Source: Phylloscopus collybita (taxonomy: Eukaryota > Chordata > Aves > Passeriformes > Phylloscopidae). Taken from it: a DNA stretch of 64,000 bases. The stretch lies in NCBI GenBank assembly GCA_027886175.1, contig JAJNNQ010000013.1:5475501-5539500 (forward strand). The letters are read 5' to 3'. Shown piece by piece: positions 55,962 to 61,500 of the stretch. Position 1 is the stretch's first letter. Every line of letters starts with the position of its first letter. The notes below the pieces were generated by a model. That model was not told the DNA's origin and searched no databases. It saw only the letters and a list, made by a program, of their open reading frames with translations. A program made the position numbers and the translations under genes.

Positions 55962-56262
55962 TAATTCGCAGCGCGTAATTTGCATAATGTGTGATTTGCA
56001 TACCACGCGGCGCGGTGCGCAGTTTGCATACTACGCAATTTGCACACCACGCAACTCGTAATTTGCATACTACTACTACGTGGCACACAATTTGCATAAT
56101 TGCGCAATTTGCATACTACGTGGTGCGTAATTTGTACAATTGCACGATTTCATACTGTGTGGCACATAATTTGCATAATTGCGCAATTTCCATACTATGC
56201 GGTGCGTAATTTGAATACTACGTGTCGCGGTGCATAATTTGCATATTGCGCAATTTGCATAC
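55962..56262. repeat. Octamer/C/EBP minisatellite, about 39-bp unit
   Basis: Imperfect tandem units of roughly 39-40 bases (for example units starting near 56102, 56142 and 56181) consist of an AATTTGCATACTACG-like half and a GTGCGTAATTTGCATAATT-like half. The perfect octamer ATTTGCAT occurs eight times, starting at 55978, 55994, 56061, 56090, 56107, 56169, 56237 and 56253. The perfect palindrome ATTGCGCAAT, a C/EBP-type site, occurs three times, at 56099-56108, 56178-56187 and 56245-56254. The array keeps many CpGs despite an AT-rich core. What is seen is a tandem array; that it binds POU or C/EBP factors is inference from the motifs alone. Confidence 0.85.
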
Positions 56263-57166: not shown

Positions 57167-57172
57167 CATCTT

Positions 57173-57492
57173 TGTTGCCATGCTTTCGTGCCTGCTTGTT
57201 TTGGTTTTGGGAATTTTATTCCCAGGCACAGTGTTGAAGCACAAGGTCATGTTCATGTAAACAACCGAAGCTCCCACATCTCTTCCCAGAGGAGGGGCTT
57301 CGGTGATGGTCTCTGGAAAATGACCAGTAGTTCCCAAGGGTCCCACCTCTGGGGTGGGCAACTTCTAAAATGTACAAAAAGGAGTCAGAAATAAAGGTGT
57401 GGTCTCTTGCCCGGGCTCTGGCCTGCAAGAGCACCATGCAGCCTTCATGATGCCTCCCTGTCTCGTTTCCCTCGGCGCCGTTATCAGTTATA
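57173..57492 (+). repeat. 5' LTR of the short ERV
   Basis: 320 bases, TGTTGCCATG to CAGTTATA. The end is TA rather than the usual CA. This boundary is chosen because it gives a 6-bp target duplication and the usual 2-base gap to the primer site. A TACAAAAAGG element at about 57373-57382 is a plausible TATA variant, and AATAAA lies at 57390-57395. Self-complementary blocks are GTGCCTG/CAGGCAC (57188 and 57223), GGGAAT/ATTCCC (57209 and 57218) and CCGAAGC/GCTTCGG (57265 and 57297). A forkhead-type TGTAAACA is at 57256-57263. Confidence 0.92.
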
Positions 57493-57494
57493 TA

Positions 57495-57513
57495 TGGTGA
57501 CCCCTGACGTGAC
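57495..57513 (+). other. Primer-binding site, tRNA-Trp-like with one extra base
   Basis: The sequence starts TGGTGACCCC two bases after the LTR, then has an extra T, then GACGTGA. Without that T it agrees with the complement of the 3' end of vertebrate tRNA-Trp, the primer of avian leukosis-type viruses. The first ten bases, which seed the primer, are intact. Confidence 0.8.
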
Positions 57514-57608
57514 CTGCAGCCGCGAGAACAAGGTAAAAAATACCTTGTCCCCTTTTTAAAGAAAAAGGGATTTTTATTTCTCTCCGCAGGGAGAAGAAAT
57601 TTGAAAAA
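57514..57608 (+). other. Structured leader of the short ERV
   Basis: Three consecutive potential stem-loops lie between the primer site and the start codon. They are ACAAGGTA/TACCTTGT around five A (57528-57548), CCCTTTTT/AAAAAGGG around AAAG (about 57550-57569), and a weaker CTCTCC/GGGAGA pairing (about 57577-57596). AAG|GTAAAA at 57531-57538 resembles a splice donor, and the T-rich tract ending CCGCAG at about 57590 resembles an acceptor. A role in RNA packaging is inferred from position only. Confidence 0.5.
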
Positions 57609-59294
57609 ATGAACCGGCCTCTAGGACCGGAAGATAACTACGTGTTAACGATGTGGGGTTTGTATCTCGGAAGATGGGAAGTAGGTATAACCTCAGAACA
57701 GCTAACACAACTATACAGATGGGGGAAAAAACAGGGTTTTATCCCGTACCCCAAAAGAGCGCGGTATAGGTCATTTTGGTCTCTTTTGGGTCAAACTGTG
57801 AATGAAGAGTTAGATATGCTAATGAAATTATCACTGATATGGGAAAGATCCATGAAGGTTTTTGAGATGTCGGGAGAAGAATTTCTTTTCAGCTCCCTTC
57901 CCGATTCAGAGGAAGAGGATCGAAGTCTCCAGACTGCTGCTGACAGCTCGGAGAGTCTCCCGAAGCCGCCTTCAGAAGACCTGGGTTTGTCCTTTCCCCC
58001 CGCTTGTCAGCCTTCTTCTGGGAAGGAGGGGGGGAAAACCCCGGGCAAACGCGGAGGCGCCCAGCGCCGGTCAGCGAATCGAGCGCCGCGAACGCGCCGT
58101 CTCCCAATCCCTCCGTGTCCTTCTCCTTCGCGAGCGGCCGCGCGCAGGAGGGGGGAGGGGGGAGGGGGTCCCGAGACGCCGTCGCGCCCCGCTCCGCGGC
58201 CACCGCGCCGCACTTTCCCATGGAAAAAGCCCATTGAGACCTTGGCGCCGCCCCGGGGACCTCACCCCGGCGGTCCGGGCTCGCAAAAGCCCGGGAGGAA
58301 GAGGGGACGAGAGTCGCCCATCCCCCAGGCGCCTGCCCCTCCGAAAAAGAGGCAAAAGGGAGTGCCGGGCGGTGCGGCTCTTTGCAGCCGCCGCAGGAGG
58401 AAGGGGGGGCTGCCCCCTCAGCCCCCCCGCCCCTCAGCCCCCTCCGGCTTGGCTCGGCCGGAGACTCCGCCCCCAAAATGCCGCGCGGCGCCTGGAGCCG
58501 TCCCGTCCCAGGGCCGCCGGGGGAGACGGGCGGGGGCTGCCCGCCCCCGCCCCGCGGGGCCCGCTGGTGCTGCCCAGCCGGCACCGCCGCTCCCCCCACG
58601 TCGCGCGGCCCGCGGAAGGCGGGCGGGGGTGGCGCGACTCCGCCCCCGCCCCGCGGGACCCGACGGGGGCGCTCTGCCGGGAACGCCGCCCGCCTGTGGG
58701 TGCGGGGGGGGCGCGCGGGGGGACCCTGCGCGGGGCCGGCCACGACCCGCCCCTCCCCCGGCGGCGCGGTCGCGGAAGAAGCCCCGACCGAAAGCCGGCG
58801 GCACCGCGGTTCCACCGGCTGCCGCTCCGGCTCTTGCCCCTCCGTCGGCGTCTCCGTTGCCTGGCAACACTGCCGACCTTCCGCCAACTGCGGCTCCACC
58901 TGCGTCTGTCGTGGACCCCTGCTGTGTCACCGTGCGCTCCAGGCTGAGCTCTCCCTGGAACGAAGTGCAACCTATGGCATGGGGACTGAGACGCTGGGGT
59001 GTGGAGAACTGCTCTTTGGGAACCCAAATGACTTCCCTTGGCGCTGACATGGCACCAGCCCACCTGGCAGGTGCTCAGAGTGAGACCCGGGTTTCTCTGT
59101 CTGCTTCTGTGCTGTTCAGAAAGCGGGCTGAGAGGGATTCGTGGCTCTCTCTCACATACCCAAGGGAATTCCAGGGATCGTGTAACCTGTGCTTTTGCAG
59201 ACCCTTGTTTTCAGGACTGGGAACTGGCGCTGGGATGTTTGCCTCGCATCTGCCGAGCACCCTGAGCCCCTGCACAGCATTCCTGGCCTGGTGA
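57609..59294 (+). CDS. Gag-like open frame with GC-rich Pro/Arg extension
   Basis: 561 codons, from the first ATG after the leader to TGA at 59292. Residues 1 to about 95 are of ordinary composition, mainly helical in character and with a basic patch (near residues 45-60), in the place and style of a retroviral matrix domain. The assignment to Gag rests on this and on position, not on a decisive motif. Residues about 95-130 are acidic and serine-rich. From about residue 130 to 430 the frame is Pro/Arg/Ala/Gly-rich because the DNA is almost all G and C. It contains a PSAP motif (residues 275-278, DNA 58431-58442), a form used as a late domain, which may be chance here. A 33-residue repeat occurs at about residues 305-370. 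The last 120 residues return to normal composition without a recognised domain. No major-homology region or zinc knuckle is present, so a normal capsid and nucleocapsid are absent. Other frames, on both strands, are also open through the GC-rich part, so translation of the extension is uncertain. Confidence 0.5.
   Translation: MNRPLGPEDNYVLTMWGLYLGRWEVGITSEQLTQLYRWGKKQGFIPYPKRARYRSFWSLLGQTVNEELDMLMKLSLIWERSMKVFEMSGEEFLFSSLPDSEEEDRSLQTAADSSESLPKPPSEDLGLSFPPACQPSSGKEGGKTPGKRGGAQRRSANRAPRTRRLPIPPCPSPSRAAARRRGEGGGGPETPSRPAPRPPRRTFPWKKPIETLAPPRGPHPGGPGSQKPGRKRGRESPIPQAPAPPKKRQKGVPGGAALCSRRRRKGGLPPQPPRPSAPSGLARPETPPPKCRAAPGAVPSQGRRGRRAGAARPRPAGPAGAAQPAPPLPPRRAARGRRAGVARLRPRPAGPDGGALPGTPPACGCGGGARGDPARGRPRPAPPPAARSRKKPRPKAGGTAVPPAAAPALAPPSASPLPGNTADLPPTAAPPASVVDPCCVTVRSRLSSPWNEVQPMAWGLRRWGVENCSLGTQMTSLGADMAPAHLAGAQSETRVSLSASVLFRKRAERDSWLSLTYPREFQGSCNLCFCRPLFSGLGTGAGMFASHLPSTLSPCTAFLAW
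58525..58745. repeat. 99-bp two-copy degenerate repeat in GC-rich core
   Basis: The block CGCCCCCGCCCCGCGGG occurs at 58542 and again at 58641, 99 bases apart, with related flanks (CGGGCGGGGG before, CCCG after). The period is a multiple of three, so the open frame reads it as a 33-residue repeat. The surrounding DNA is extremely GC-rich: 50 of 60 bases in 58561-58620 are G or C. Confidence 0.7.
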
Positions 59295-59594
59295 ACGTCC
59301 CAAGTTGTGTATCCTGTATCCTCCCTAACACCACCCCTCCAGAGACCTGCATGATGCATGGAGGGGAGACGGAGCACTGCTTCGACAGCTAGCATCCCAT
59401 GATCGGACTCCGAGAGGACTCTTCCCTGTGGTTTTGCTTGCATTCCAGGGGGAGTGTTGTGGACCTCTGGGGGTGGGATTCTTGGCTGGGGTTTGGGGGG
59501 GCAGGATCGGGATGGATTTTGTAATGAGTGTCATTGCATTGCATGGCACAGCATCTCACCCGACAAGGATTCGGCGACTGGTCACAGCATGTTT

Positions 59595-59640
<46 letters not shown>

Positions 59641-59828
59641 AAAAGGGGGAAAAAGCAGGGAACAGTCCCTGCAGATTAGCCAACAGGCAAATTGGAAACT
59701 GTGACCAGAATGAGAGCCGACAAGTGGAGAAATCTACGAGTCTTCAATTGAAGACCTCTCCACAAGCAGATATAAAAATCTGCATTTTTCTTTTTTCCTT
59801 TCTTTTTATATAAACTGAAAGGGTGAGA
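59295..59828 (+). other. 3' untranslated part of the short ERV
   Basis: There are no frames of note after the TGA at 59294. A T- and G-rich part (59440-59530) is followed by a 43-base A run and a purine-rich stretch. A final AT-rich segment includes the inverted repeat AGATTTTT/AAAATCT-like sequence near 59770-59785. The purine tract directly before the 3' LTR (AAAGGGTGAGA, 59818-59828) is short and interrupted by a T. The far longer purine tract at 59596-59660 is an alternative plus-strand primer region but lies about 170 bases upstream of the LTR. Confidence 0.55.
59596..59660 (+). repeat. 43-base A run followed by purine tract
   Basis: Forty-three consecutive A (59596-59638) are followed by GAAAAAGGGGGAAAAAGCAG-type purines. 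No AATAAA is found within the 200 bases before it. The exact length may vary between copies and is prone to sequencing slippage. Confidence 0.95.
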
Positions 59829-60148
59829 TGTTGCCATGCTTTCGTGCCTGCTTGTTTTGGTTTTGGGAATTTTATTCCCAGGCACAGTGTTGAAGCACAA
59901 GGTCATGTTCATGTAAACAACCGAAGCTCCCACATCTCTTCCCAGAGGAGGGGCTTCGGTGATGGTCTCTGGAAAATGACCAGTAGTTCCCAAGGGTCCC
60001 ACCTCTGGGGTGGGCAACTTCTAAAATGTACAAAAAGGAGTCAGAAATAAAGGTGTGGTCTCTTGCCCGGGCTCTGGCCTGCAAGAGCACCATGCAGCCT
60101 TCATGATGCCTCCCTGTCTCGTTTCCCTCGGCACCGTTATCAGTTATA
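59829..60148 (+). repeat. 3' LTR of the short ERV
   Basis: 320 bases identical to 57173-57492 except for A instead of G at 60132. The AATAAA at 60046-60051 is the expected polyadenylation signal of the element. It is followed directly by the target duplication CATCTT (60149-60154). Confidence 0.92.
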
Positions 60149-60154
60149 CATCTT

Positions 60155-60692: not shown

Positions 60693-61500
60693 GTAGAAAA
60701 TCTGGCCTCTGTAGTTGTAATTGTGAAATGTGTGGAACGAGGCCATGAGACAATTATAAAAATGCATTTTAATAAAAAACTAAACAAAGCATGGAAAGAG
60801 GCCTTTAGATAAATATTTTGCTTGCTTATAAGTGAATAATGTGAACTTCAAAGTTTTCACAATATAAGTTTTAAGTTTTCTTTCACATGTAGGATAGAAC
60901 AATGCGGATGCATTATTATTGGTTTTGAAAATAAAATTATTATAAGCTTTAAGCTGCTTTGTAACAAGAAGTTTTAAACTATAGCTTTAGAATATATAAA
61001 AGGAGTTGCAATCACCAAAATAAAAGAAGGAAGTGATCTTATCCCAAGCTAAAAATTGATAATCCTGGAAAGGAAAACTGGACGATCCTGGAGAGGAAAG
61101 CTGGAGCTCACCATCACTGATGTATAATCCTGAAAAGGGAAGCTGGAGCTCACCATCACTGATGTATGCTTCTGGAAAAGGGAGGCTTGACATGATCATC
61201 ACTAATTTACAACCTTAGGGTATAGAAATTCGACGTCACCAATAAGAACTGATCACAATGGGGTATAGAAATCAGACTTCACACATAGAAACTAGGAGGA
61301 AACCATAAAAAACTGCTGAGAAATGCTTATGAAGATGCTCAATAAATACCAGCAAAAATATGTAGCCGGTGTGCAGTTGGAGGGGAGACCCCCACTGCAC
61401 CCAGCACGCTGCTTTGCTCACACTTTACCATTTGACATAATGAATAAATAAATGGATTGTTGCTTGATATACTGGCTGAGTCGAGCTCTTCATTCCTTAC
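60693..61500 (+). mobile_element. Possible LTR-like unit with internal tandem repeats
   Basis: The region has the internal logic of an LTR: AT-rich left part, a strong TATA box (TATATAAAAGG, 60993-61003), a repeat-bearing stretch, and AATAAA signals at 61341-61346 and 61443-61452. No convincing terminal TG...CA pair or target duplication was found, so the limits are approximate and the call is tentative. It could instead be a host promoter and first exon. Confidence 0.3.
61061..61209. repeat. 42-bp tandem repeat array
   Basis: Units start at 61084, 61126 and 61168, exactly 42 bases apart, with a truncated 23-base unit at 61061. Units two and three share GCTGGAGCTCACCATCACTG exactly. A second weaker pair follows (GGTATAGAAAT at about 61219 and 61262), also about 43 bases apart. 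Confidence 0.9.

What the first reader, a model, noticed from the sequence alone, without database searches (positions are those of the whole stretch)
57167..60154. Very young, sub-3-kb retrovirus-like element without pol or env
Two 320-bp LTRs differ at one base, a 6-bp duplication CATCTT flanks the element, and a tRNA-Trp-like primer site follows the 5' LTR. Yet the interior holds only one gag-like open frame and no enzyme genes. Near-identical LTRs mean recent movement, so a helper virus was, or is, supplying proteins in trans. It may be a non-autonomous avian family, comparable in logic to other defective, trans-mobilised retroviral families.
Basis: partly seen in the sequence, partly recalled or inferred. 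Interest (0 to 1): 0.75.

Follow-up and report, generated by a model that had tools for sequence, protein, structure and literature searches.

The report
Young non-autonomous retrovirus-like element family
This is one recent copy of a multi-copy family of short retrovirus-like elements that keep the ends and about half of one structural gene but no enzymes, so they were most likely copied by machinery borrowed from other elements; the kind is known, and this family looks like a new example of it.

Summary
In detail: a 2,976-bp element (57173-60148) with 320-bp LTRs differing at one base, a 6-bp target duplication and a tRNA-Trp-like primer site. It is not a one-off. The LTR/primer-site junction occurs at 95 places in the same assembly (control 0). 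The 56 whose length I could resolve are short; 39 stay unresolved. None of the 95 has any of the 150 scored reverse-transcriptase hits within 12 kb downstream. Of 47 copies read, 37 have exact 6-bp duplications, and 14 of these have identical LTRs. Gag-pol elements in the same genome share the leader, an N-terminal Gag (matrix-like) domain, the last codons of pol and the 3' end; the two 3' ends read carry no env. So the family looks like an internal-replacement derivative of an apparently env-less gag-pol lineage. The matrix-like part of its frame shows purifying selection (omega-like 0.44, p=0.002); the rest does not. The actual helper was not found: relatives share at most about 47 bp of LTR. 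A 650-bp segment ending in a poly(A) tract is of unknown origin. New member of a known kind.

The parts
57167..57172 (.). target-site duplication CATCTT (left)
57173..57492 (+). 5' LTR, 320 bp, TG...TATA
   Evidence: 41 matches listed in the own genome out of 1577 first-look candidates, of which 40 were scored
57495..57512 (+). primer-binding site, tRNA-Trp-like with one extra T against the recalled tRNA-Trp end
   Evidence: 38 of 47 copies have this form, 6 of 47 the exact recalled form, 3 single variants
57513..57608 (+). leader; with the primer site, 75-80% identical to 4 of 12 sampled five-prime ERV pieces
57609..59294 (+). open frame, 561 aa: N-terminal part of a Gag plus about 118 codons of unmatched sequence
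57609..57926 (+). matrix-like N-terminal Gag domain
   Evidence: 32-35% identity to 3 relatives, scores 132-160 against shuffle maxima 51-59; purifying selection
57960..58940 (+). GC-rich Pro/Arg/Gly-rich stretch of variable length, similar in composition and position to the Gag of the relatives
   Evidence: sequence homology not shown (best E 0.05)
58941..59595 (+). segment of unknown origin, not found in the two relatives' 3' pieces
   Evidence: no hit; in all 47 copies read
59596..59644 (+). A tract; longest run 10-52 among 47 copies, at the same place
59645..59828 (+). 3' tail with hairpins (z -3.9) and purine-rich tract before the LTR
   Evidence: two blocks 75-80% identical to L067 and L075
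59679..59741 (+). relic of the last pol codons (after integrase)
59829..60148 (+). 3' LTR
60149..60154 (.). target-site duplication CATCTT (right)

Best explanation
A non-autonomous LTR-retroelement family derived from a gag-pol endogenous retrovirus lineage that appears to lack env. Capsid, nucleocapsid, protease, reverse transcriptase and integrase were lost and a 650-bp segment ending in an A tract stands in their place. The family keeps what RNA copying needs in cis (LTRs, primer site, leader, 3' purine tract) and a frame for the N-terminal part of Gag. Shown: shared anatomy of many copies, copy-specific 6-bp duplications, young LTR pairs, homology at both ends to gag-pol elements, constraint on the matrix-like domain. 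Inferred: element RNA was packaged into particles made by a related gag-pol element, recombined with other copies during reverse transcription, and was integrated by that element's integrase.
For: Junction search 95 hits, control 0; 48 lie in loci read and 8 more pair with a tail hit at 2.2-2.4 kb, so 56 of 95 are short, none seen long; none of the 95 has any of the 150 scored RVT_thumb hits within 12 kb downstream. Exact 6-bp duplications in 37 of 47 copies, 14 of 37 with identical LTRs, mean LTR difference 0.0049. Relatives: leader 75-80% in 4 of 12 five-prime pieces, matrix-like homology in 5 of 12; tail in 2 of 2 three-prime pieces, behind the integrase C-terminal domain PF00552 in the one tested; pol relic in one frame above 500 of 500 shuffles against both. 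Recombination: 953 of 1770 site pairs show all four combinations among 17 copies. Matrix-like domain 25 silent / 30 replacement variants in 47 copies, expected silent fraction 0.268, p=0.0023; no excess in the other two frames.
Against: No gag-pol element with the same LTR was found; an LTR patch of 46-48 bp is shared by 3 of 12 five-prime pieces and nothing more. The four primer sites found in relatives carry 2-3 differences from the recalled tRNA-Trp end. 7 of 12 sampled pieces show no relation, though pieces were cut at a fixed distance and may have missed the 5' end. 39 of 95 junctions have unresolved length; only 150 of 1270 reverse-transcriptase candidates were scored. 10 of 47 copies lack an exact duplication. 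Four-gamete patterns can also come from repeated mutation or gene conversion.
Confidence: 0.85

Rival explanations
1. One-off internal deletion of a single full-length provirus.
For: The pol relic and Gag-derived 5' end show that the family began with an internal loss.
Against: 56 of 56 resolved junctions belong to the same short structure, and 37 of 47 copies read have their own exact duplications.
Confidence: 0.02
2. The segment 58941-59644 is a captured host transcript with its poly(A) tail, as in retroviral transduction of cellular genes; the GC-rich part might even be the transcript's CpG-island end.
For: A 49-nt A tract lies close before the pol relic; the segment is absent from the relatives' 3' pieces.
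Against: No AATAAA seen in the about 60 nt upstream of the A tract (read). The GC-rich part matches the composition and position of the relatives' own Gag. No source gene identified; neither genome query with this segment was answered.
Confidence: 0.25
3. Copies multiplied mainly by segmental duplication or gene conversion of old insertions.
For: Some copies do look so: L015/L016 inverted pair with identical flanks, L039 tandem, L051/L052/L056 sharing the six bases before the 5' LTR.
Against: 37 of 47 copies have exact duplications, which differ from copy to copy with few repeats.
Confidence: 0.05
4. The partial Gag protein acts for the host or against the helper (dominant-negative or developmental role) and this, not the element's own spread, keeps the matrix-like frame.
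For: Constraint on the matrix-like domain; Gag-only families with developmental roles exist (PMC10996621, passages).
Against: No expression or functional data; the same signal could be inherited from gag-pol relatives by recombination.
Confidence: 0.1

Closest known systems
BHIKHARI-1/-2, zebrafish gag-only endogenous retroviruses (PMC10996621, passages seen)
   Same: Young, multi-copy, vertebrate, non-autonomous; Bik-2 is described as having gag but neither pol nor env, 'like Bik-1'.
   Different: Its Gag is described with conserved structural domains; here only the matrix-like part and a Pro-rich stretch, no capsid recognised, plus an unmatched segment with an A tract. BHIKHARI is placed with lokiretroviruses; ours has RVT_thumb-positive relatives. 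Sequence relation not tested.
Chicken ENS-1 / ENS-3 (Soprano) pair (PMC10996621, passages)
   Same: A bird case: a Gag-encoding non-autonomous variant of a full ERV.
   Different: ENS-3 is placed beside ERV-L there; ours shows 6-bp duplications. Sequence relation not tested.
Bovine ERVK[2-1-LTR] D-type elements (PMC10924933, passages) and mouse ETn/MusD as told in PMC10089650 (passages)
   Same: Defective, thought to be mobilised in trans; the bovine D-type outnumbers the competent type and recombines with it.
   Different: D-type elements are about 6.8 kb and lack intact genes; here 3 kb with a constrained partial Gag, and a competent partner with the same LTR is not found.
Crow corCorLTRK1b insertion, 2.25 kb (PMC7341801, passages)
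   Same: Short ERVK-type insertion in a songbird, dated there at about 530,000 years.
   Different: Sequence relation not tested.
Plant TR-GAG elements (PMC8704663, passages)
   Same: LTR element with a single Gag frame that moves without its own enzymes.
   Different: Full-length Gag in a plant Copia-family element; here a partial Gag.
ART-CH of chicken (recalled, not read)
   Same: Recalled as a short chicken retrotransposon with a tRNA-Trp site and gag remnants.
   Different: Not compared.

Membership tests
LTR retroelement / endogenous retrovirus | two direct LTRs and target duplication | tested here: met
   window copy; exact duplication in 37 of 47 copies
LTR retroelement / endogenous retrovirus | LTR ends TG...CA | tested here: not met
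   3' LTR ends in TATA in 46 of 47 copies, one truncated; ends deviating from TG...CA are reported for finch LTRs (PMC6523648, section 9)
LTR retroelement / endogenous retrovirus | primer site and 3' purine tract | tested here: met
   the match to tRNA-Trp rests on recall
Autonomous gag-pol ERV | protease, reverse transcriptase, integrase | tested here: not met
   no profile match in the frames given; only an end-of-pol relic
Trans-mobilised non-autonomous ERV (ETn, bovine D-type kind; VL30 recalled) | many insertions of one shortened structure | tested here: met
   (56 of 95 junctions resolved, all 56 short)
Trans-mobilised non-autonomous ERV (ETn, bovine D-type kind; VL30 recalled) | autonomous partner sharing cis ends | tested here: inconclusive
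   leader and tail 75-80%, LTR at most about 47 bp
Trans-mobilised non-autonomous ERV (ETn, bovine D-type kind; VL30 recalled) | mobilisation by proteins in trans | not testable with these tools
   needs cells
Gag-only families (BHIKHARI, ENS-1, TR-GAG) | full Gag with capsid | tested here: inconclusive
   no capsid profile in the frame, but the relatives' own Gag pieces given also hit no Pfam model, so the profiles may be blind to this lineage
Class II (ERVK-like) ERV | 6-bp duplication; retroviral pol of that class in the source lineage | tested here: inconclusive
   6 bp met; relatives were picked by PF06817 RVT_thumb; no tree was built

The most novel reading that the evidence does not exclude
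A vertebrate retroelement family that lives by encoding only part of a Gag: selection keeps the matrix-like domain while capsid and enzymes are gone, so the fragment does a job in its own spread (RNA choice, trafficking or entry into foreign particles), and its new interior began as a captured host transcript with its poly(A) tail.
Probability: 0.15. Interest if true: 0.7.

Novelty: new member of a known kind. Interest (0 to 1): 0.42.

Why it matters
That makes questions such as how such families arise, what they must keep, and whether they drain their helpers open to comparison with the cattle and mouse cases.

Tried and rejected
Pfam, NCBIfam and PDB-sequence searches of the frame gave nothing below E 0.17; the 5.8-billion-protein search with residues 1-120 scored none of 32 candidates. 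Viral contigs: no relative. Rfam: nothing at gathering scores in the window; one sub-threshold mir-150 match in the element, taken as chance. Structure of the matrix-like domain: pLDDT 58.8 alone and 62.2 with 4 sequences, all helical; Foldseek best E 4.6, no support. One-off deletion and spread mainly by DNA duplication rejected (see rivals). The idea that the GC-rich part is a captured CpG island was set back when relatives' Gag proved similarly GC-rich. Papers: I saw no description of this family in the listings, but subscription papers and Repbase are not held.
Full report
Observation. The element spans 57173-60148. Its LTRs differ at one of 320 positions, CATCTT flanks it, and a tRNA-Trp-like primer site starts 2 bp after the 5' LTR. 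A 300-bp perfect direct repeat plus a 6-bp duplication at both ends is not chance. The LTR ends in TATA, not CA.

It is a family. The LTR gave 41 listed matches (1577 first-look candidates, 40 scored), the leader plus matrix-like part 40 (265 candidates) and the tail 40 (326 candidates). From the first search I read 22 loci: 17 hold an LTR pair with the full interior, and L027, L029, L030, L031 and L032 hold LTRs only and were left out of the copy counts. From the second search I read 29 loci. L015 and L016 are an inverted pair with flanks identical over 500 bp, so L015 was dropped; L039 is a tandem and counts twice. With the window copy that makes 47 units. All 47 have interiors of 2.20-2.44 kb with the same parts in the same order. 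Exact 6-bp duplications: 37 of 47. Among these 37, LTR mismatches were 0 in 14, 1 in 8, 2 in 7 and 3-7 in 8; the mean difference was 0.0049. With a recalled bird rate of about 2e-9 per site and year this is about 1.2 million years on average and 0.8 for the window copy, with wide error. The copies were the best matches to this one, which favours young ones. Four of the LTR-only loci are single LTRs with their own duplications: L027, L029, L031, L032.

Census. The junction pattern, up to one mismatch, hit 95 places with 0 in the reversed control. 48 lie in loci I read (both of the inverted pair included); 8 more pair with a tail hit at 2.18-2.41 kb, two of them with the same tail hit. So 56 of 95 are short, none was seen long, and 39 are unresolved. 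Three of the 39 were sampled just behind the junction and carry leader and matrix-like part, which does not settle their length. None of the 95 has any of the 150 scored RVT_thumb hits within 12 kb downstream (a first run with part of the list is). 1120 of the 1270 RVT_thumb candidates were not scored.

Source lineage. RVT_thumb gave 150 scored hits, many in long open frames. I read 12 five-prime pieces of different classes, cut at a fixed distance from the hit. Five have a matrix-like homologue: L063, L070, L071, L072, L068 (the matched stretch of L071 and of L072 holds a stop). Four of these also match the leader; L072 does not. L063, L070 and L071 share an LTR patch of 46-48 bp. Seven show no relation: L062, L064, L065, L066, L069, L073, L074; a piece may have missed the 5' end. 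Identity of the matrix-like domain is 32-35% to three relatives, with alignment scores 132-160 against maxima of 51-59 in 1000 shuffles. The two three-prime pieces, L067 (same element as L063) and L075 (same as L070), match the tail at 75-80% in two blocks, the second reaching the LTR. In L067 the integrase DNA-binding domain PF00552 (E 2.4e-10) lies just before, so there is no room for env. The first tail block is the end of the pol frame, in one frame only and above 500 of 500 shuffles for both relatives. The LTR of L063 recurs in L067 at 95.5%, so that copy is older than most copies of the family read here.

The frame. ATG and the matrix-like part are open in 47 of 47; 46 of 47 stay open for at least 445 codons (L045 stops at 234); 36 of 47 share the C-terminus ending LAW and 11 do not (my count). 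The length of the variable GC-rich part keeps frame in 38 of 47 copies and 16 of 24 distinct lengths. Of distinct indels behind the stop and before the A tract, 0 of 11 are multiples of three; in the last part of the frame 2 of 3 are (Fisher p 0.033; indels at the A-tract edge left out). Substitution: matrix-like part omega-like 0.44, p 0.0023; first 300 bp of the Pro-rich part 1.02 and C-terminal part 0.80, neither different from neutral; behind the stop 0.76-1.11. These are counts of variants, not tree-based tests, and copies are related. The safest reading is constraint on the matrix-like domain only. Relatives have a similarly GC- and Pro-rich stretch after their matrix-like domain, so this part is probably old Gag; direct homology is not shown.

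Recombination. Among 17 copies, 953 of 1770 pairs of two-state sites show all four combinations, also between distant segments. The primer site has two main forms, 38 and 6 of 47. This fits template switching between co-packaged RNAs, but repeated mutation and gene conversion were not excluded.

Mechanism. Shown: family, insertion signature, youth, derivation at both ends, constraint. Inferred: transcription from the 5' LTR, packaging through the leader, copying and integration by a related gag-pol element. Missing: the helper. If the helper is of the sampled lineage it has no env, and the system is an intracellular parasite of a retrotransposon, not a virus with a satellite.

Known kinds. Gag-only or defective, trans-mobilised families are known in zebrafish, chicken, cattle, mouse, deer mouse and plants (passages of PMC10996621, PMC10924933, PMC10089650, PMC8704663), and in crows LTR retrotransposons are the commonest identified transposable element in insertions and deletions, one of them a 2.25-kb ERVK insertion (PMC7341801, passages). 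What stands out here is the partial Gag with constraint on its matrix-like part and the unmatched segment with a length-variable A tract. I file it as a new member of a known kind.

Noticed in passing
L015/L016 (C22:316419-332090 of the assembly): Two copies in inverted orientation with the same duplication and 500-bp flanks without a difference: a palindrome or an assembly artefact.
   Followed up: partly
L039 (C54:2268072-2274943): Tandem LTR-interior-LTR-interior-LTR array of two units.
   Followed up: partly
L051, L052, L056 (C79): Three copies share the six bases before the 5' LTR and have diverged 3' LTRs: probably segmental duplication.
   Followed up: no
L030:3001-3697: Two inverted LTRs 62 bp apart with mutually inverted flanks.
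   Followed up: no
contig C59 of the assembly (18.0 Mb): Holds 37 of the 150 scored RVT_thumb hits and 14 of the 95 junctions; might be a W chromosome or another ERV refuge.
   Followed up: no
window 59655-59790: Stable hairpins including GTCTTCAATTGAAGAC, fold z -3.9; possibly an RNA export or packaging element.
   Followed up: partly
window 57495-57514: Two main primer-site forms in the family, one with an extra T; the site should be rewritten from the tRNA at each cycle, so persistence of two forms is odd.
   Followed up: partly
window 56074-56217 and 61085-61203: Tandem arrays of about 40 and 42 bp near both sides of the element.
   Followed up: no
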